In this document: positions 1,422 through 37,394 of the stretch, in pieces
Layout: every line of letters begins with the position of its first letter
Numbering within the stretch: the first letter of the stretch is position 1
DNA from: a virus
Virus record (IMG/VR): IMGVR_UViG_3300037340_000026
Coordinates: 1 to 64,000 of that record
Length of the DNA stretch: 64,000 nt
Reading direction: 5' to 3' (one strand)
Made by a program: the position numbers and the translations under genes
Notes under the pieces: model-generated
What the model was told of the DNA's origin: nothing
Database searches by the model: none
What the model saw: only the letters and a program-made list of their open reading frames with translations

Positions 1422-1562
1422 GTGACTGCGCCCGCCACCACTCCGCTTTCCTATAACGCCTACGTCCAACAGTTGGGCGTTATGGCGGTTGCTAGTAAAA
1501 CGGAAGATTGGTGTCAGTACGCCAGTGTTCGTAGACGTAGACGCAAGCGTAAACAAAGATGA
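1422..1562 (+). pseudogene. Truncated, frameshifted copy of the start of the next adaptor gene
   Basis: A GTG-initiated 46-residue frame that stops at the start codon of the next gene (ATGA overlap). Its first 24 residues (MTAPATTPLSYNAYVQQLG and so on) match 15 of 24 residues at the start of the adaptor encoded at 1559. After that the reading frame diverges, but a shifted frame still gives STPVFVDVDA, resembling the adaptor's STGVFGFVD. This looks like a remnant of a tandem partial duplication. It might still be translated as a short peptide. There is no good ribosome-binding site before the GTG. Confidence 0.5.
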
Positions 1563-2347
1563 GCGCTCCAGGCTTAAACCCACTGTCATTCAACGCTTGG
1601 GTCCAGACGATTGGATCGATGGCCGTCGCGCTGACGCAGGAGAGTACCGGCGTTTTTGGCTTTGTAGACCCTCCACTACAACAAATCCTGCCGCAAATCT
1701 TGTCATACGCCGAGGGGAGAATTCAGCGCGACATCGATTTCCTGAACGCGCGAGCATCGAATACGTACGCGCTCACTGCTGGCAGCAATCTGCTGTCTAT
1801 TCCGATCAATGATTTTCTCATCGTTGAAACCCTTGAAGTGACGCAGAACAATGGCACTCAGGTAGTCAACAGCACGCCGCTGACGCCCGTGTCGCGCGAG
1901 TTCATCCAGAACTGTTATTCGGGACTAGCGCAGGCAGGTCAGCCAAAGTTCTTTGCGATGGCAGGTGACAATTTTGGCGATGGTGCCGATTCGTATATCA
2001 ACGTGCTATTCGGACCACCGCCGAACTACGCCTATCCGGTGCGCGTCAATGGCGTGATTCGATTGCCGTCATTGGCTCAGTTTGCGAGCGCCGGTCCTGC
2101 GGATACGTCGTATACGTACATCTCGCAATTCATGCCAGACCTGTTGATGATGGCGAGCATGATTTATATCTCGGCGTTCCAGCGTGGGTTCAGTTCTACC
2201 AGTGATGATCCGCAGATGGGAATGACCTACGAGAAGCAATACCAGGCGCTTCGGCTAGGCGCGATCAGCGAGGAGAACAGAAAGAAATTCTTAGGATCAG
2301 CGTTCTCGTCGTACTCCACGCCAGTGTCCGCCACGCCGACTCGGTGA
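1559..2347 (+). CDS. Phage adaptor (head-tail connector) protein
   Basis: 262 residues. The pattern (N-terminal helix, PPLQQILPQILSYAEGRIQRDI, a central beta domain, and a C-terminal helical stretch MPDLLMMASMIYISAFQRG followed by YEKQYQALRLGAI) is characteristic of adaptor or tail-completion proteins that sit under the portal in short-tailed phages. The length fits. It lies directly before the gp10-like tail hub, the usual order. Confidence 0.7.
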   Translation: MSAPGLNPLSFNAWVQTIGSMAVALTQESTGVFGFVDPPLQQILPQILSYAEGRIQRDIDFLNARASNTYALTAGSNLLSIPINDFLIVETLEVTQNNGTQVVNSTPLTPVSREFIQNCYSGLAQAGQPKFFAMAGDNFGDGADSYINVLFGPPPNYAYPVRVNGVIRLPSLAQFASAGPADTSYTYISQFMPDLLMMASMIYISAFQRGFSSTSDDPQMGMTYEKQYQALRLGAISEENRKKFLGSAFSSYSTPVSATPTR

Positions 2348-2350
2348 CGC

Positions 2351-4396
2351 ATGCCACATGCGATGCTGAGATTGGTGGGTGGCGCGAATACGACTGAGAC
2401 ACCATCGCTCAATGAAAACTCTGGAATCTCCCAGACCAACCTGATTCGCTACGCGTACGATCCCAACGGCTCACCCCTCTGCCAAAAACTCGGCGGCTGG
2501 TCGAAATTCTTCCCCACAGTAATGTCCGCCATCGTCCGCGCGCTGTGGGCGTGGGAGGACATTGACGACAACGCGCATCTAGCGTTTGGCACGCAAGTTT
2601 GGCCATCCGGAACACAGTCGCAGCTTGGCGTCATCACTGCGGGCGTCCTTGCTGATATCACGCCAGTGCAGGCTAATAGCCTCATCAACCCTCCGACGGC
2701 TTTCGCGACCATCGGCAGTCCGTCGATCAAAATAGTCGATGCCGCCACGCCTGGAATTGACGGCACATGCAGCGTATACATCCCGACGCAAATTGCCGTC
2801 GGCGGAGTTGTTCTGTTCGGTCTCTACCAGTGTGATCCTGACGCGTATGCAGACGCGACGTCGTACACTGTCTATGCGAGGGATATCCTCGGGAATCTAT
2901 TGCCCGCGACCACGACCGCGGCGGCCATATTGCCAGAGTTTACTACCATTGGCGTCAACACCGTCGAAGTTAACTTCCCTGATCACGGATATTCTGTTGG
3001 CAACACGTTCCCGGTTCTCGTGCCGACTACGATCGGCGCCAGCGGCATCACTCTCTATGGCAATTACATCATCCAGTCCGTTACCAACGCCAACTCTTTT
3101 ACGATTCTGGTGCCTGGCGCCGCTTTCAGCATAAACACCGCTACGCTAAACGGTGGCGCCGCGATCTTTATTTATAACGGAAAGGGCGCATCACCGCCCT
3201 CAGCATTGCCGATTGCAACAGCAGATTGGACATTAGACAATTTCGGCCAAGATTTAATCGCGTGTCCAACTACCTCAACGGCAGCGCCATTAGGTGTCCC
3301 AATTCCGTATCAGCCGATCTATGGTTGGACGCCAGTTGGACAGTTAACTGCCGCGGTGATACCGCAGGCGCCACCGCTAAACGACGGCGTGTTTGTCGCG
3401 ATGCCGCAGCGTCAGCTCGTGGCGTGGGGCTCGACACAGACAGGCATCCAAGATCCTTTGCTCATCAACTGGTCCGACGTCAACAATCCATTTCAGTGGA
3501 TTGCGCTCGTGACCAATCAAGCTGGCTCCTATCGCATCCCGAAGGGCTCGCGTATTGTCGGCTGCGTTCAGGGCCCGCAGCAAGCGCTTGTCTGGACCGA
3601 TATCGATGCCTGGTCGATGCAGTACATCGGCCCTCCGTACGTCTACTCCTTCAACGAAGTCGGCACCGGGTGCGGCCTGATTGCGCGCAAAGCGGCTGCG
3701 GCCGTGAACGGCATCTATTACTGGATGGGGCCATCGCAGTTTTACACGCTCGGCGGCGGAGGCGTGCTGCCGCTGCCGTGTCCAGTCTGGGATGTTGTCT
3801 TCCAGAATCTGAATCAGGCAAACATGACTAAAATACGCGTTGCTGTCAATTCACGGTTCGGCGAGATTCAGTGGTTCTACCCTTCGGCGAACGGTACCGG
3901 TGAAGTCGATTCGTACGTCAAGTACAATATCTATATGAACGAGTGGGACTACGGCTCGCTTGGACGCACGGCGTGGGTAGATCAGTCGGTGCTCGGGCCT
4001 CCGATTGGCGCCGATCCTGCATCGTTGTATCTTTATCAGCACGAGACCTCGAACGATGCCGATGGCGTAGCGATGCTGCCGTTCTTACAGACCGGATACT
4101 TTACGATAGCGGAAGGGGATTTCAAGACTTTTATCGACTGGGTGTGGCCCGACGCGCGCTATGGGCAGTGGTCCGAAGCACAAAATGCTACGTTGCAGAT
4201 TTCATTCCTGTGCGTGGACTACCCAGGGGATGCGCCTCAAGTATTCGGCCCCTATTCTGTCACACAGGCAACGAAGTACTTTAACACTCGGCTTCGAGCC
4301 AGACTGATTGCTGTTAAACTCTCGTCATCGGATCTAGGAACTTGGTGGCGTATAGGGGCCTTGCGCTACCGTTTTTCTCAGGATGGCAAGATATGA
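2351..4396 (+). CDS. gp10-like packaged-DNA stabilisation / tail hub protein
   Basis: 681 residues. The start (LVGGANTTETPSL, then YDPNGSPLCQKLGGWSKF) and the repeated short beta segments fit the beta-propeller tail hub family (P22 gp10 / nozzle type) that plugs the head after packaging. It is longer than P22 gp10 because of a beta-rich insert at about residues 140-290 containing the HGYSVGNTF motif, similar to the Ig-like module in the protein at 195. The C-terminus ends in a typical propeller strand (WWRIGALRYRFS). The start is taken at 2351, four bases after the adaptor stop. Confidence 0.7.
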   Translation: MPHAMLRLVGGANTTETPSLNENSGISQTNLIRYAYDPNGSPLCQKLGGWSKFFPTVMSAIVRALWAWEDIDDNAHLAFGTQVWPSGTQSQLGVITAGVLADITPVQANSLINPPTAFATIGSPSIKIVDAATPGIDGTCSVYIPTQIAVGGVVLFGLYQCDPDAYADATSYTVYARDILGNLLPATTTAAAILPEFTTIGVNTVEVNFPDHGYSVGNTFPVLVPTTIGASGITLYGNYIIQSVTNANSFTILVPGAAFSINTATLNGGAAIFIYNGKGASPPSALPIATADWTLDNFGQDLIACPTTSTAAPLGVPIPYQPIYGWTPVGQLTAAVIPQAPPLNDGVFVAMPQRQLVAWGSTQTGIQDPLLINWSDVNNPFQWIALVTNQAGSYRIPKGSRIVGCVQGPQQALVWTDIDAWSMQYIGPPYVYSFNEVGTGCGLIARKAAAAVNGIYYWMGPSQFYTLGGGGVLPLPCPVWDVVFQNLNQANMTKIRVAVNSRFGEIQWFYPSANGTGEVDSYVKYNIYMNEWDYGSLGRTAWVDQSVLGPPIGADPASLYLYQHETSNDADGVAMLPFLQTGYFTIAEGDFKTFIDWVWPDARYGQWSEAQNATLQISFLCVDYPGDAPQVFGPYSVTQATKYFNTRLRARLIAVKLSSSDLGTWWRIGALRYRFSQDGKI

Positions 4397-5079
4397 TTTG
4401 CTCTATCTGCAAAGTCGATAAACCTGAGGATGCCTTTGGATTTCGGAGGGGAAGCGGAGCGCACCGAAAGGAATTCTGCTGCGGTTGCGCAAAGGTGCGT
4501 CGCGCTGAGATGAAACACCAGACATATGCGCAACGAGAAAGCAAAGACCCGGAGAAATGCCGTCGATCGTGGGTATATCTGACCTCCGAGGAAAGGGCGC
4601 TACCGTTCTACAAACGCCATCCTGAAAAGACCAAAAAGGAAAGCAATGAGAGAAGGTGGCGAAACATAGATATGGTCCGCGCTCACGACAGGGAGAGGCA
4701 TCACGCCGAACCAGAAAAGCAGAGAAAGCGTAAGAAATTGTGGCGGCAAGCAAACCCCCATAAGTTACGAGAGCAAAACGTACAGCGTCAGGCTGGACAA
4801 AGGAAAGCTCAGCCTAAATGGCTAACGCCGATAGACCTATGTCTGATACAGGAAATGTACGACGTAGCACGTGCCAAGACTATGCAGACCAGTATCAAGC
4901 ACAATGTGGATCACACGGTACCGTTGAAGGGACAAACCGTATGCGGTCTGCATGTGCCATGGAATTTGCAGGTAATTACAGAAGCAGAAAATAAAAGCAA
5001 AGGACACAGGTTCACTCCCCAGGAATTGGCGATGTCTGCATATCGCTTGAGCAGAGGAGACGATCTTAATGACCGATAG
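4393..5079 (+). CDS. HNH homing endonuclease with N-terminal zinc ribbon
   Basis: 228 residues from the ATG that overlaps the previous stop (ATGA); an earlier in-frame ATG at 4342 lies within the upstream gene. The N-terminus has CSIC and CCGC pairs (zinc ribbon). The middle is strongly basic and helical. The C-terminal HNH core reads HNVDHTVPLKG, GLHVPWNLQ and ENKSKG, with the DH, N and N/K positions in place. Expected to be a free-standing, selfish DNA endonuclease. It sits between two structural genes and shares zinc-ribbon style with the HNH gene at 45023. Confidence 0.85.
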   Translation: MICSICKVDKPEDAFGFRRGSGAHRKEFCCGCAKVRRAEMKHQTYAQRESKDPEKCRRSWVYLTSEERALPFYKRHPEKTKKESNERRWRNIDMVRAHDRERHHAEPEKQRKRKKLWRQANPHKLREQNVQRQAGQRKAQPKWLTPIDLCLIQEMYDVARAKTMQTSIKHNVDHTVPLKGQTVCGLHVPWNLQVITEAENKSKGHRFTPQELAMSAYRLSRGDDLNDR

Positions 5080-5476
5080 CTATACCCATCCGCCAACGGC
5101 TCCTACGCCAGCTGCCAAGAGCCCACAATCCGCAGGCGCGTCGCTCTCAGATATCCTCAGCGCGATCAAGAATCTCGTGACGGCGGTCAACGCGCTCGCG
5201 CAGAACTACCTGAACGTCGAGGGGCTGACGAACTCAGGGCCGCTGGCAGTGCCTACGGTCGTCAAAGCCTCGGCAGGGCGCGTGGCTCGAGTCAGCGTTA
5301 CCACTGCAGGATCGACGGCCGGCATGATCTATGATGGGGCGAGTTTGTCAGCTACCTCGAAACCCATGTACGCCATCCCGGATGCGGTTGGCGTCGCCGA
5401 ATTTATCTGGCCGTTTGCGTTCGGAATACTCGTTGTGCCGGGAACGGGGCAAGTTGTCGCAGTGAGTTATTCATGA
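5069..5476 (+). CDS. Small virion protein
   Basis: 135 residues, overlapping the HNH gene by 11 bases. The N-terminal 50 residues are Pro/Ala-rich and helical; the C-terminal domain (GRVARVSVTTAG through VPGTGQVVAVSYS) is a compact beta unit common in phage accessory structural proteins. No enzyme motif. Probably a tail or head accessory protein. Confidence 0.65.
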   Translation: MTDSYTHPPTAPTPAAKSPQSAGASLSDILSAIKNLVTAVNALAQNYLNVEGLTNSGPLAVPTVVKASAGRVARVSVTTAGSTAGMIYDGASLSATSKPMYAIPDAVGVAEFIWPFAFGILVVPGTGQVVAVSYS

Positions 5477-6792
5477 GCGATCCAGTCACCATAGCTTTAC
5501 ACACGGCCCGCCAGCGCCGCGACGAAGGCGGCGCGCTGAGTCCCGTAGACATGCCGCACGTTCGCACACCGAAGTTTCATAACGGCGCGATACACAGCGG
5601 GGTTGCCGGGCGCACGGACCATTTACCGATCACGGTTGAGTCAGGGAGCTACGTGGTACCGGCTGACATCGTGAGTGCTGGGGGCTCCGGCAATACTCTC
5701 GCCGGCTTCAAAGTCTTGCGCCGAACCTTCGGCGGCGAGCCGTATGGTGCGGGGTCGGGACCCTACGGCCAGAATAAAGGTGTGTATGGGCTGCCGGTCC
5801 AATACGCTGCCGGAGGGGCTGTAACGCCGGATCTGGCTACTCTAGATGGTCCTCAAAAATCTGATCCCGGTTACCTATACCACGCGACAAACCATGAGCG
5901 GGCGTCGGACATAGCGTCAAATGGTCTGAAAACGCATCGACCGTCTCAATTCACCGATCAATCGACGTGGCCCGATGGCAGCAAGGAAAAGCGCAACTAT
6001 TTTGCGCGTGCCGAAAATGCGTGGCAATTTGCCCCCGAGGAGGGGAAACCGGCTCTTTTAAGGGTTCCGATGGCAGCGCATCCATTTAAGCGTGAATCTA
6101 CCGGGGACTTCTATTCCACGGTGCCCGTACCGCCCAGCAAGATCGATTATCTGGCCGCAGACAAATCCTGGAACCCGCTTCATAGATTGCGTGGCGCGCG
6201 AGCCTCTGGCGGCCGCACCCGCGCCGCCGGCATCCTGTTCCTATCGCCCGAGAAAGAAGTGCTGCTGATGCGCCGGACGGAAAACGACGGCGATCAGGGC
6301 AAATGGGCCTTTCCGGCAGGTGGCATCAAAAAGGACGAAACGCCGGAGGAAGCCGCGCGGCGCGAGACACGGGAGGAATCTGGGTACGAGCACGAGGGCG
6401 GACTGTCGCCGTTCATGCACAGCGATGCGCAGAATGTTGATTTCACTACCTATCTAGCACATAGTCAGAAATTCGATCCGAAGCTGAATCACGAGCATGA
6501 CGGAGCCAAATGGGTGACTCTAGATGAGGCCGCAAAGCTACCGCTGCATCCGGGCGTCAAGGCTGCGCTCGAAAAACTCGCCACGCGTGCGGGTAAGGCC
6601 CACGGCGGCGAATCCTCGGGCGTGCCGATCGTCGCGGCTGGAGGCGAGTGGGTCATTTCGCCCAGTCACGTCAGGCAAGTTGGCGGCGGCGACATCGATC
6701 TCGGGCACCGCGTGCTCGACAGTTTCGTGCACCGTGTCCGCAAGGAACTGATTGGCACCCTCGCCAAACTTCCAGGCCCCAGACGTGACTGA
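5473..6792 (+). CDS. Structural protein with inserted ART-like and Nudix hydrolase domains
   Basis: 439 residues. Residues 1-115 and about 375-439 form the two halves of a known type of phage structural protein (HNGAIHSGVAGRTDHLPIT, SGSYVVPADIVSA; and GVPIVAAGGEWVISPSHV, DLGHRVLDSFV). Between them are two extra domains. Residues about 130-245 (YLYHATNHERASDIASNGL, then YFARAENAWQF) resemble an ADP-ribosyltransferase-like fold. Residues about 250-370 are a Nudix hydrolase with a near-perfect box, G-x5-E-x7-RE-T-R-EE-S-G, where T replaces the usual hydrophobic residue. Nudix enzymes cleave nucleoside diphosphates linked to other groups, including ADP-ribose. ATGA overlap with the upstream gene. 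The Nudix call is firm; the ART call is inference. Confidence 0.8.
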   Translation: MSDPVTIALHTARQRRDEGGALSPVDMPHVRTPKFHNGAIHSGVAGRTDHLPITVESGSYVVPADIVSAGGSGNTLAGFKVLRRTFGGEPYGAGSGPYGQNKGVYGLPVQYAAGGAVTPDLATLDGPQKSDPGYLYHATNHERASDIASNGLKTHRPSQFTDQSTWPDGSKEKRNYFARAENAWQFAPEEGKPALLRVPMAAHPFKRESTGDFYSTVPVPPSKIDYLAADKSWNPLHRLRGARASGGRTRAAGILFLSPEKEVLLMRRTENDGDQGKWAFPAGGIKKDETPEEAARRETREESGYEHEGGLSPFMHSDAQNVDFTTYLAHSQKFDPKLNHEHDGAKWVTLDEAAKLPLHPGVKAALEKLATRAGKAHGGESSGVPIVAAGGEWVISPSHVRQVGGGDIDLGHRVLDSFVHRVRKELIGTLAKLPGPRRD

Positions 6793-6961
6793 CTCCCCTC
6801 AAACCCAAGACACCCGCGACATTGCCGAGCACTTGGCGAGCAGGATCATCGATGATCGCGCCTTTGACGTTATCGCAATGTCGTATCTGATCGAGAATGA
6901 ACTAGACAAGTACGTGGAAGAGGGCACGATGCGACTGGCTAAGGCTGCGGATCGGCGATGA
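6785..6961 (+). CDS. Small hypothetical protein
   Basis: 58 residues from GTG 6785, overlapping the previous stop by 8 bases; an alternative in-frame ATG at 6752 would add 11 residues inside the upstream gene. Acidic and helical (IAEHLASRIIDDRAFDVI). It overlaps the GNAT gene by ATGA. Function not recognised; common as a small linker gene beside the phage acetyltransferase. Confidence 0.55.
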   Translation: MTDSPQTQDTRDIAEHLASRIIDDRAFDVIAMSYLIENELDKYVEEGTMRLAKAADRR

Positions 6962-7452
6962 GCGAGCCTACTCTAGAAATTAGACTCGCCACGGCGGCGG
7001 ATATGGATGAGGTGATGAAGTTGGCGGTAACGTGCTGCGAAGAAAACGGGTTTGTCAACGCGAGCGCGGACTTGTTAGCCAAGGAGATATACCCAGCGCT
7101 CTGCCAGGATCATGGCCTGTTCCCAGTAATTGGCGAACCCGGTGGCGCTATCGAAGGCGGAGCGCTTTTGCGAATCGGCGCTATGTGGTACTCGCACGCC
7201 TCCGTCGTTGAAGAGCGCGCGATCGTCATCTACCCGAAGTTTCGGTCGGCCAAGGGCGGCAGGGCACGCCGGCTGTGCGAATACAGCAAACATGTTGCCG
7301 ATACGCTTGGCATTCCGCTACTCATAGGGGTTTTGAGCAATACCCGCACTGAGGGAAAGGTGAGAATGTACAAGAGAATTTTTGGCGAGCCTGCCGGGGC
7401 TTTTTTTCTGTATGGCGCGCAAGCGGTTCCTGGGCATGAGGTGGTAGCGTGA
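6958..7452 (+). CDS. GNAT-family acetyltransferase
   Basis: 164 residues. Starts with IRLATAADMDEVMKLA, a typical GNAT first strand and helix; the acetyl-CoA loop region is FRSAKGGRARRLCEY, followed by IGVLSNTRTEGKVRMYKRIFG, the usual fourth and fifth motifs. Transfers an acetyl group from acetyl-CoA to an unknown acceptor. This type is frequently placed between tail-hub and ejection genes in short-tailed phages, so it may act on a virion or host protein. ATGA-coupled to the preceding small gene. Confidence 0.75.
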   Translation: MSEPTLEIRLATAADMDEVMKLAVTCCEENGFVNASADLLAKEIYPALCQDHGLFPVIGEPGGAIEGGALLRIGAMWYSHASVVEERAIVIYPKFRSAKGGRARRLCEYSKHVADTLGIPLLIGVLSNTRTEGKVRMYKRIFGEPAGAFFLYGAQAVPGHEVVA

Positions 7453-36167: not shown

Positions 36168-37394
36168 ATGCCGATTCAAACGACTTTCAAAGATGATGGC
36201 TGCGCGCGAGTCAAGGTGTGGACGACTGACATTGAGGAATCCGCGCTCAAGCAGTTGCATAACCTTTCGACGCTGCCGTTCATCCATAAGCACATCGCTG
36301 TCATGCCAGATGTTCATTGGGGTATGGGCTCGACCGTGGGCAGCGTGATACCTACCATCAAGGCAATTGTCCCGGCTGCGGTCGGCGTAGATATTGGCTG
36401 CGGGATGGTTGCGCATAAGCTGAACCTGCGAGCAGACCAACTACCGGATAGCCTCCACGCTGCGCGTACTGCGATTGAGGCGGCGATCCCACATGGCCGT
36501 ACCGATAACGGCGGCAAGGGAGATCGCGGCGCCTGGAACGATGTACCGCCTGCTATCTCCGAAATCTTCAAGGGACTGGCCGAGGACAAGCGTTTCCGTG
36601 CTATTGCCGAGAATGAGCCAAAGGCGATGGCCGGGCACGTCAATGCGGAGCGCCACCTTGGCACCCTCGGGACTGGGAACCACTTCATCGAGCTTTGCCT
36701 GGATAAGAACGACGGCGTGTGGCTGATGCTGCATAGCGGGAGCCGTGGTATCGGCAATCGGCTTGGGACTTATTTCATCGCCAAGGCGAAGTCCGAAATG
36801 GAGCGCTGGCACATCAATCTGGCCGACCCTGATCTAGCCTACTTGCCGGAAGGCACCGATGCGTTCGGAAACTATTGGAAGGCGGTGAGTTGGGCGCAGG
36901 ACTTCGCGCAGGCCAATCGATCGATCATGATGGATAGTGCTATACGCGCCGTCTCCGAGGCTCTAGGCGTAGCCGTGGTGACCAGCGAGCACGCAGTTAA
37001 CTGTCACCACAATTACGTCGCGATTGAGAACCACTACGGCCAGAACGTCTATGTGACGCGCAAAGGCGCTGTCCGCGCACGCGAGGGCGACATGGGGATC
37101 ATTCCTGGCTCAATGGGCGCCCGCAGTTTCATCGTACGTGGCAAGGGCAACCCGGAATCGTTCTGCTCGTGTTCGCACGGCGCGGGTCGGCGAATGAGTC
37201 GTGGCGAAGCAAAGCGCCGATATAGCGTAGCGGACCTTGAGGCACAGACCGCTGGCGTCGAATGCCGCAAGGACGCTGATGTGATCGATGAGATTCCTGA
37301 GGCGTACAAATCTATTCAGGAAGTCATCGATAATCAGAGCGATCTGATCGATGTAGTTGCTGAGCTGCGGCAGATCGTGTGCGTGAAGGGATGA
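36168..37394 (+). CDS. rtcB: RtcB-type RNA ligase
   Basis: 408 residues, full length for bacterial RtcB. Catalytic and metal motifs are all seen: MPDVHWG, VGVDIGCGM (metal-binding Asp, Cys), GTLGTGNHFIE, LHSGSRGIGN, HAVNCHHNY, IIPGSMGARSFIV and CSHGAGRRMSR (the His that carries GMP). RtcB joins 5'-OH ends to 2',3'-cyclic-phosphate or 3'-phosphate ends using GTP and manganese, as needed to repair cleaved tRNAs. An AGGAGG-like site lies before ATG 36168, 14 bases after tRNA-Pro; tRNA-Gln begins at the base after its stop. Confidence 0.95.
   Translation: MPIQTTFKDDGCARVKVWTTDIEESALKQLHNLSTLPFIHKHIAVMPDVHWGMGSTVGSVIPTIKAIVPAAVGVDIGCGMVAHKLNLRADQLPDSLHAARTAIEAAIPHGRTDNGGKGDRGAWNDVPPAISEIFKGLAEDKRFRAIAENEPKAMAGHVNAERHLGTLGTGNHFIELCLDKNDGVWLMLHSGSRGIGNRLGTYFIAKAKSEMERWHINLADPDLAYLPEGTDAFGNYWKAVSWAQDFAQANRSIMMDSAIRAVSEALGVAVVTSEHAVNCHHNYVAIENHYGQNVYVTRKGAVRAREGDMGIIPGSMGARSFIVRGKGNPESFCSCSHGAGRRMSRGEAKRRYSVADLEAQTAGVECRKDADVIDEIPEAYKSIQEVIDNQSDLIDVVAELRQIVCVKG

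What the first reader, a model, noticed from the sequence alone, without database searches (positions are those of the whole stretch)
5473..6792. Virion-type protein interrupted by an ART-like domain and a Nudix hydrolase
The first 115 and last 65 residues read as one structural protein; the middle 260 form a YHATN...NGL domain resembling ADP-ribosyltransferases plus a canonical Nudix box. An enzyme that moves ADP-ribose beside one that hydrolyses such compounds suggests control of NAD or ADP-ribose signals, perhaps delivered with the virion against NAD-depleting defences. The Nudix motif is seen directly; the ART call and role are inference.
Basis: partly seen in the sequence, partly recalled or inferred. 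Interest (0 to 1): 0.72.

Follow-up and report, generated by a model that had tools for sequence, protein, structure and literature searches.

The report
Phage tail-region protein carrying swappable enzymes
A small protein made next to the tail and DNA-injection proteins of a short-tailed bacterial virus has picked up two enzyme domains, first a Nudix hydrolase and then an ADP-ribosyltransferase, in the flexible joint between its two halves, which suggests it is a carrier that swaps tools probably meant for the infected cell.

Summary
ORF 5473-6792 (439 aa) is one conserved phage protein with two enzyme domains in its middle. Its flanks are two tandem copies of a small beta-beta-alpha-alpha module joined by a disordered linker. 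Most relatives (121 of 165 sampled) carry only a short linker, 13 carry a Nudix domain, and only this genome carries an ART-like domain in front of the Nudix. The ART is a 396-bp in-frame insert (5812-6207) relative to a phage 84-93% identical on both sides. Its model (pLDDT 93.5) matches ART-superfamily structures (KptA/Tpt1, then ExoA and DarT) and has the H-Y-D triad of ARTs in phage "polyvalent" proteins. Its close relatives sit in giant multidomain phage proteins. The proposed coupled NAD/ADP-ribose control is not supported: the Nudix came first, and no Nudix box lies near any of the other 31 ART loci examined. A ParB-like module at a second site in sister proteins likewise also occurs in giant polyvalent proteins. 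Best reading: an interchangeable enzyme carrier of the podovirus tail/ejection gene block, whose ART probably modifies host molecules early in infection. Delivery with the virion, targets and activity are inferred, not shown.

The parts
5473..6792 (+). Whole ORF: carrier protein with ART-like and Nudix cargo, 439 aa
5608..5736 (+). N-terminal repeat of the carrier (GRTDHLPITVESGSYVVPADIVSAGGSGNTLAGFKVLRRTF; beta-beta-alpha-alpha)
   Evidence: Conserved in hundreds of viral contigs; AF2 model of relative L053; aligns with the C-terminal repeat, hhalign E 2.7e-5, 36% identity over 33 positions
5737..5811 (+). PYG/GG-rich linker; disordered in the carrier model; cargo site B
   Evidence: pLDDT below 50 at residues 112-136 of the L053 model; all site-B inserts fall here
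5812..6207 (+). 396-bp (132-codon) in-frame insert holding the H-Y-D ART-like domain; absent from every relative examined
   Evidence: blastn to L004 is contiguous across the site: window 5816 = L004 5347, window 6208 = L004 5343
5872..6189 (+). ART-like fold core; H137 (5881-5883), Y176 (5998-6000), D212 (6106-6108) invariant
   Evidence: AF2 pLDDT 93.5, pTM 0.85; PDB top 19 all KptA/Tpt1; alignment A3 of 23 sequences
6214..6564 (+). Nudix hydrolase domain
   Evidence: Pfam PF00293 E 3.3e-22; nearest solved structures are MutT/Nudix pyrophosphohydrolases
6319..6384 (+). Nudix box, catalytic glutamates intact
6598..6789 (+). C-terminal repeat of the carrier (SGVPIVAAGGEWVISPSHVRQVGGGDIDLGHRVLDSFV...)
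1559..2347 (+). Upstream virion structural protein (P22 gp4-like position), syntenic with the carrier in 174 of 208 carrier loci
   Evidence: phrog_2941 E 0.0044; synteny
2351..4396 (+). P22 gp10-like tail stabilisation protein, upstream in 199 of 208 carrier loci
   Evidence: phrog_3287 E 1e-59; annotated 'phage stabilization protein' in MW202675.1
5069..5476 (+). 135-aa protein directly upstream, conserved in 160 of 208 carrier loci
6958..7452 (+). GNAT-like protein directly downstream in 174 of 208 carrier loci
   Evidence: phrog_1249 E 0.004; 'putative acetyltransferase' in MW202675.1
7516..11379 (+). 1287-aa virion protein with Peptidase_S74 chaperone domain, downstream in 154 of 208 loci; syntenic protein annotated 'internal virion protein D' in MW202675.1
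11370..13145 (+). DNA ejection protein
   Evidence: phrog_26400 E 1e-35

Best explanation
The ORF encodes a small carrier protein of the tail/ejection gene block of a podovirus (P22-like tail genes). The carrier is two copies of a beta-beta-alpha-alpha module joined by a flexible, GG-rich linker. Enzyme modules are accepted, without loss of frame, at GG-linker sites: site B between the two repeats and site A just before the first. In this lineage a Nudix hydrolase entered site B in an ancestor, and later an H-Y-D ADP-ribosyltransferase module entered in front of it. The ART comes from the pool of modules shared with giant phage polyvalent proteins. Most likely the protein is built into or ejected from the virion. 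The ART then transfers ADP-ribose from NAD to a host macromolecule early in infection, and the Nudix independently hydrolyses a nucleoside-diphosphate compound. Shown by computation: the architecture, the insertion, its order and origin class, the ART fold with its triad, the intact Nudix box, and synteny with tail and ejection genes. Inferred: packaging, ejection, catalytic activity and targets.
For: Empty carrier in MW202675.1, Nudix-only carrier in nine contigs. 396-bp in-frame ART insert relative to L004, which is 84-93% identical on both sides. Tree: 11 Nudix rows plus the window form a group with SH-aLRT 97 among cargo-free rows, the ART row nested beside L003/L004. ART model pLDDT 93.5; PDB hits all KptA/Tpt1 for ranks 1-19, then ExoA and DarT; best viral-model hits are mycobacteriophage ParB-like proteins, TM 0.84-0.86. 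H in strand 1, Y in strand 2, D beginning a late strand, invariant in 23 sequences, the configuration reported for polyvalent ARTs (PMC5512222). ART relatives lie in proteins with MuF, Acb1-like 2H, ParB, GGACT, InPase, ART-PolyVal, LPD23 and LPD38 domains. The ParB-like cargo of sister carriers (L113, L249-L251) also occurs in 1,100-2,000-aa proteins, two of which were scanned and hold ddrB-ParB. GG linker before the C repeat in 160 of 179 ORFs versus 21% background. Synteny with gp10-like, GNAT and large virion proteins in 154-199 of 208 loci.
Against: No proteomics shows the carrier in a virion. The ART at this site is known from one metagenomic contig only. No Pfam model for polyvalent ARTs matches the domain. 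The GNAT neighbour call is weak (E 0.004). The samples of carrier relatives were seeded with Nudix-type members, so the counts are not frequencies. Cargo at other sites in L070 and L072 was called ART-like by eye only.
Confidence: 0.6

Rival explanations
1. The ART and Nudix work as a pair: the ART makes ADP-ribose or ADP-ribosylated products and the Nudix clears or recycles them, controlling NAD-derived signals.
For: Both domains are in one polypeptide and plausibly share chemistry. A KptA-type ART fused to a Nudix is reported in Bodo saltans virus (PMC9503650; the protein also appears). Phage Nudix proteins are proposed to counter ADP-ribose signals (PMC9503650).
Against: The Nudix precedes the ART in the lineage and is kept without it. 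No Nudix box near the ART in 31 other ART loci. Nudix substrate unknown; nearest solved Nudix proteins are mixed MutT-, Ap4A- and CTP-type enzymes.
Confidence: 0.17
2. The protein is not delivered: it is a tail or assembly component made late, and the enzymes act in the producing cell or on other virion proteins during assembly.
For: No direct evidence of ejection; late structural genes are expressed in the producing cell; cargo is absent from most carriers, so it is not needed for structure.
Against: The carrier lies immediately upstream of a GNAT-like gene and ejection-type proteins. The ART module's other hosts include a MuF head protein, and polyvalent proteins are argued to be injected (PMC5512222).
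Confidence: 0.17
3. The ART domain is a KptA/Tpt1-type RNA 2'-phosphotransferase that repairs RNA together with the RtcB ligase of the same genome.
For: Closest solved folds are KptA/Tpt1; the genome carries an RtcB-like ligase at 36168-37394.
Against: The domain is about 120 aa against roughly 180 aa for KptA. Pfam listed no KptA family for any of 23 members at E up to 1; phrog_5470 only at E 0.3. It has the H-Y-D set. No gene linkage to RtcB.
Confidence: 0.05
4. The ART segment is an assembly chimera rather than a real part of the gene.
For: One contig only; L004, otherwise 84-93% identical, lacks it.
Against: The insert is exactly 132 codons, in frame, bounded by the same GG linkers used elsewhere in the family, with every invariant ART residue intact.
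Confidence: 0.03

Closest known systems
Phage polyvalent proteins (Iyer et al. 2017, PMC5512222) and their H-Y-D ART domains
   Same: Several conflict-type domains in one polypeptide; the ART module is shared by sequence with giant phage proteins holding MuF, ParB, InPase and LPD domains; H-Y-D active-site pattern
   Different: The host here is a small two-repeat protein in a podovirus tail/ejection gene block, with cargo in the hinge between repeats; no Pfam polyvalent model matches the ART or the carrier
Virion-fused phage Nudix domains (PMC9503650: fused to MuF, portal, head protease)
   Same: Nudix domain embedded in a protein of the structural gene region; this Nudix also hits PHROGs for portal and head protease proteins
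   Different: Carrier is a different protein family; ART added beside the Nudix; podovirus rather than myovirus
Bixzunavirus (mycobacteriophage C1) ParB/ART protein, phrog_3147
   Same: ART domain 45% identical, TM 0.84-0.86
   Different: Fused to a ParB-like domain; no Nudix; no carrier repeats
KptA/Tpt1 tRNA 2'-phosphotransferase
   Same: Best solved-structure fold match to the ART domain
   Different: Smaller domain, no Pfam KptA match, different conserved residues
T4 Alt (injected ART)
   Same: General idea of an ART delivered with the phage genome
   Different: Alt belongs to the R-S-E type ART clade (PMC5512222); here H-Y-D and embedded in a carrier

Membership tests
ART superfamily, H-Y-D type (polyvalent / Tox-ART-HYD) | ART fold | tested here: met
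   AF2 pLDDT 93.5; PDB ranks 1-19 all KptA/Tpt1, probability 0.97-1.00, though E is only 3e-3 to 3e-2; then ExoA and DarT
ART superfamily, H-Y-D type (polyvalent / Tox-ART-HYD) | H in strand 1, Y in strand 2, D in a late strand | tested here: met
   H137, Y176, D212 invariant in 23 sequences; strand positions from the model. Geometry of the three residues in the model was not measured
ART superfamily, H-Y-D type (polyvalent / Tox-ART-HYD) | Match to curated profiles (ART-PolyVal, Tox-ART-HYD) | tested here: inconclusive
   No Pfam hit for the window domain; 4 of 23 relatives hit Tox-ART-HYD1 and 1 hits PARP, best E 0.029 and 0.061
ART superfamily, H-Y-D type (polyvalent / Tox-ART-HYD) | NAD-dependent ADP-ribosyl transfer | not testable with these tools
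   needs purified protein
Nudix hydrolase | Nudix box GX5EX7REUXEEXGU and fold | tested here: met
   Pfam E 3.3e-22; box intact; one position of the box (T where a bulky hydrophobic is usual) departs
Nudix hydrolase | Acts on ADP-ribose or NAD | not testable with these tools
   Sequence neighbours are of mixed specificity
Polyvalent protein | Two or more conflict-type domains in one polypeptide | tested here: met
   ART and Nudix
Polyvalent protein | Domains shared with recognised polyvalent proteins | tested here: met
   ART relatives with MuF, InPase, ART-PolyVal, LPD23, LPD38
Polyvalent protein | Delivered into the host with the element | not testable with these tools
   Only genomic position supports it
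KptA/Tpt1 | Full two-lobe KptA protein recognised by the family profile | tested here: not met
   No KptA family in Pfam at E up to 1 for 23 members; about 120 aa against 176-187 aa for the KptA targets
MuF-type toxin/head protein | MuF domain in the same protein | tested here: not met
   No MuF hit in the ORF

The most novel reading that the evidence does not exclude
The two-repeat protein is a general, swappable cargo carrier of a large uncultured podovirus group. At two GG-linker sites it accepts enzyme modules (Nudix, several ART-like, ParB-like, others) exchanged with giant polyvalent proteins, and it takes them into the host with the ejection proteins.
Probability: 0.4. Interest if true: 0.72.

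Novelty: new variant of a known kind. Interest (0 to 1): 0.55.

Why it matters
Polyvalent phage proteins are known as giant proteins, mostly from larger phages. Here the same modules turn up in a small two-repeat protein beside the ejection genes of a podovirus group, with empty, one-cargo and two-cargo states preserved, so module gain can be followed step by step. If the carrier is injected, it gives a compact natural system for asking which enzymes phages deliver and against what, and a marker (two repeats around a GG linker) for finding such modules in uncultured phages.

Tried and rejected
Sequence search of the ART profile against PDB found nothing credible. Plasmid search with the ART found none; the single scan of genome contigs found one locus. 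Fold search of the carrier model against PDB gave no meaningful hit, best E 3. Phage-collection search with the Nudix alone gave no match at 1e-8. Literature searches for virion proteomics of related phages (Pag-Yong1, Bxz1, podovirus terms) gave nothing usable, and none for domain insertion plus Nudix. Relatives of the L070 and L072 inserts were not found, so their ART-like look stays an impression. GC content does not mark the ART as foreign: 55% against 58% for the window, 27th percentile; its GC3 is lower than the flanks, 53% against 69-73%. For the substitution counts and the tree the carrier's two sides were laid end to end inside the script for counting only, and not printed.

Full report
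What is there. The ORF 5473-6792 encodes 439 aa. Pfam places a Nudix domain at aa 248-364 (E 3.3e-22), with an intact box at nt 6319-6384, the only one in the window. Residues 116-238 match the C-terminus of phrog_3147 (E 7e-20). The window is 64 kb of a 70,219-bp virus record. Terminase, portal, major head, tail-spike, gp10-like tail and DNA-ejection proteins were identified, which points to a podovirus with a P22-like tail module.

The flanks. In MW202675.1 the N and C flanks form one 193-aa protein with neither enzyme; in nine viral contigs (63-96% identical in the best segment) they surround a Nudix but no ART. The N flank alone recovers more than 580 relatives in viral contigs. Of 165 non-redundant carrier ORFs examined, 121 have the short spacing between repeats, 18 a longer one, and the rest were cut by a contig end or not scored; the searches were seeded with Nudix-type members, so these are not frequencies. 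The model of a cargo-free relative, L053, shows strand-strand-helix-helix twice, with residues 112-136 between the copies at pLDDT below 50. Profile comparison of the halves gives 36% identity over 33 positions, E 2.7e-5. So the 'structural protein' is a tandem repeat with a flexible hinge, and the cargo sits in the hinge. No solved structure resembles the repeats.

The insertions. Contig L004 is 84-93% identical to the window on both sides of the ART and runs straight through: window 5816 aligns to L004 5347 and window 6208 to L004 5343, which gives a 396-bp, 132-codon, in-frame insert at 5812-6207. A tree of 140 carriers puts 11 Nudix rows plus the window together (SH-aLRT 97) among cargo-free rows, with the window beside L003 and L004; one further Nudix row, L052, falls elsewhere (quick tree, few columns). 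The order is therefore empty, then Nudix, then ART. The Nudix evolves under constraint (dN/dS 0.12-0.14).

The ART. Twenty-three aligned sequences share 19 invariant columns, among them H, Y and D at H137, Y176 and D212 of the window protein. The model has pLDDT 93.5 and pTM 0.85. Against PDB, ranks 1-19 are all KptA/Tpt1, followed by exotoxin A domain III and DarT lower down; E-values are modest (3e-3 at best), but the consistency is strong. Against viral models the top two hits are mycobacteriophage ParB-like proteins at TM 0.84-0.86, then ParB/sulfiredoxin proteins and RNA 2'-phosphotransferases. Four relatives hit Tox-ART-HYD1 and one PARP, only weakly. The H-Y-D arrangement is the one described for polyvalent-protein ARTs (PMC5512222).

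Where the modules come from. The ART's other hosts are large phage proteins with MuF, Acb1-like 2H, ParB, GGACT, InPase and ART-PolyVal domains or LPD23 and LPD38. None of the 31 ART loci carries the carrier or a Nudix box. A second cargo site lies before the N repeat. There L113 and L249-L251 carry a ParB-like module (GHEGRHR) that also occurs in proteins of 1,100-2,000 aa, two of which hold ddrB-ParB. L250 and L251 carry two modules in a row bordered by RASGG or RATGG, and the window's ART ends in the same RASGG. A GG linker precedes the C repeat in 160 of 179 ORFs against 21% of positions at large. L070 and L072 carry inserts that look ART-like by eye but match no profile and have no relatives found.

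How it most likely works. In 208 carrier loci a gp10-like tail protein lies upstream in 199, a GNAT-like gene downstream in 174, and the large S74-domain virion protein downstream in 154. The related cultured phage Pag-Yong1 has one copy of the repeat motif (VADGEYVIPADVVSGIGNGSTEAG) at the end of the second protein after its gp10-like protein. The simplest reading is a virion or ejection-associated carrier whose hinge tolerates folded domains; the ART would modify host macromolecules early and the Nudix would act on its own substrate. Packaging, ejection and activity are inferred. The paired NAD/ADP-ribose idea is weakened by the separate histories but not excluded: a KptA-Nudix fusion exists in Bodo saltans virus (PMC9503650).

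What is known and what is new. Polyvalent proteins and virion-fused ARTs and Nudix domains are described (PMC5512222, PMC9503650). A text search of the held papers found none describing this carrier or an ART-Nudix insertion in a podovirus virion-region protein, though figures and subscription papers were not searchable. The finding is filed as a new variant of the polyvalent kind.

Noticed in passing
window 4342-5079 (+): Endonuclease VII/HNH-like gene (phrog_26577, phrog_1035) between the gp10-like gene and the 135-aa gene. Homologues sit at other places in relatives (L005 before gp10, L006 and L053 after the carrier), as expected of a mobile free-standing endonuclease.
   Followed up: partly
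window 36168-37394 (+): RtcB-like RNA ligase (phrog_1075, E 1e-145), a possible RNA-repair gene in a phage that also carries an ART.
   Followed up: no
window 6958-7452 (+): GNAT-like gene directly after the carrier in 174 of 208 loci. GNAT or acetyltransferase-like genes also lie in the tail/ejection block of CRP-901 and HTVC023P, so another possibly delivered enzyme.
   Followed up: partly
L250:3309-4844, L251:3338-4975: Carriers with two modules in a row at the N-terminal site; the first module (FEVGTRFTTPHSR...GHWADKNGKYGYNVV) has no Pfam match.
   Followed up: no
L070:695-1900, L113:3736-4974, L139: Short motifs phrog_2423 (MPLKKGSSQKTISKNI...) and phrog_16028 (GLYANIHAKQERIAHGSHEHMRKPGSQGAPTA) recur as separate pieces around the cargo.
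   Followed up: no
L016:251-4672: 1474-aa MuF protein with Acb1-like 2H, ParB, the same ART and a GGACT domain: a large multi-enzyme head protein.
   Followed up: no
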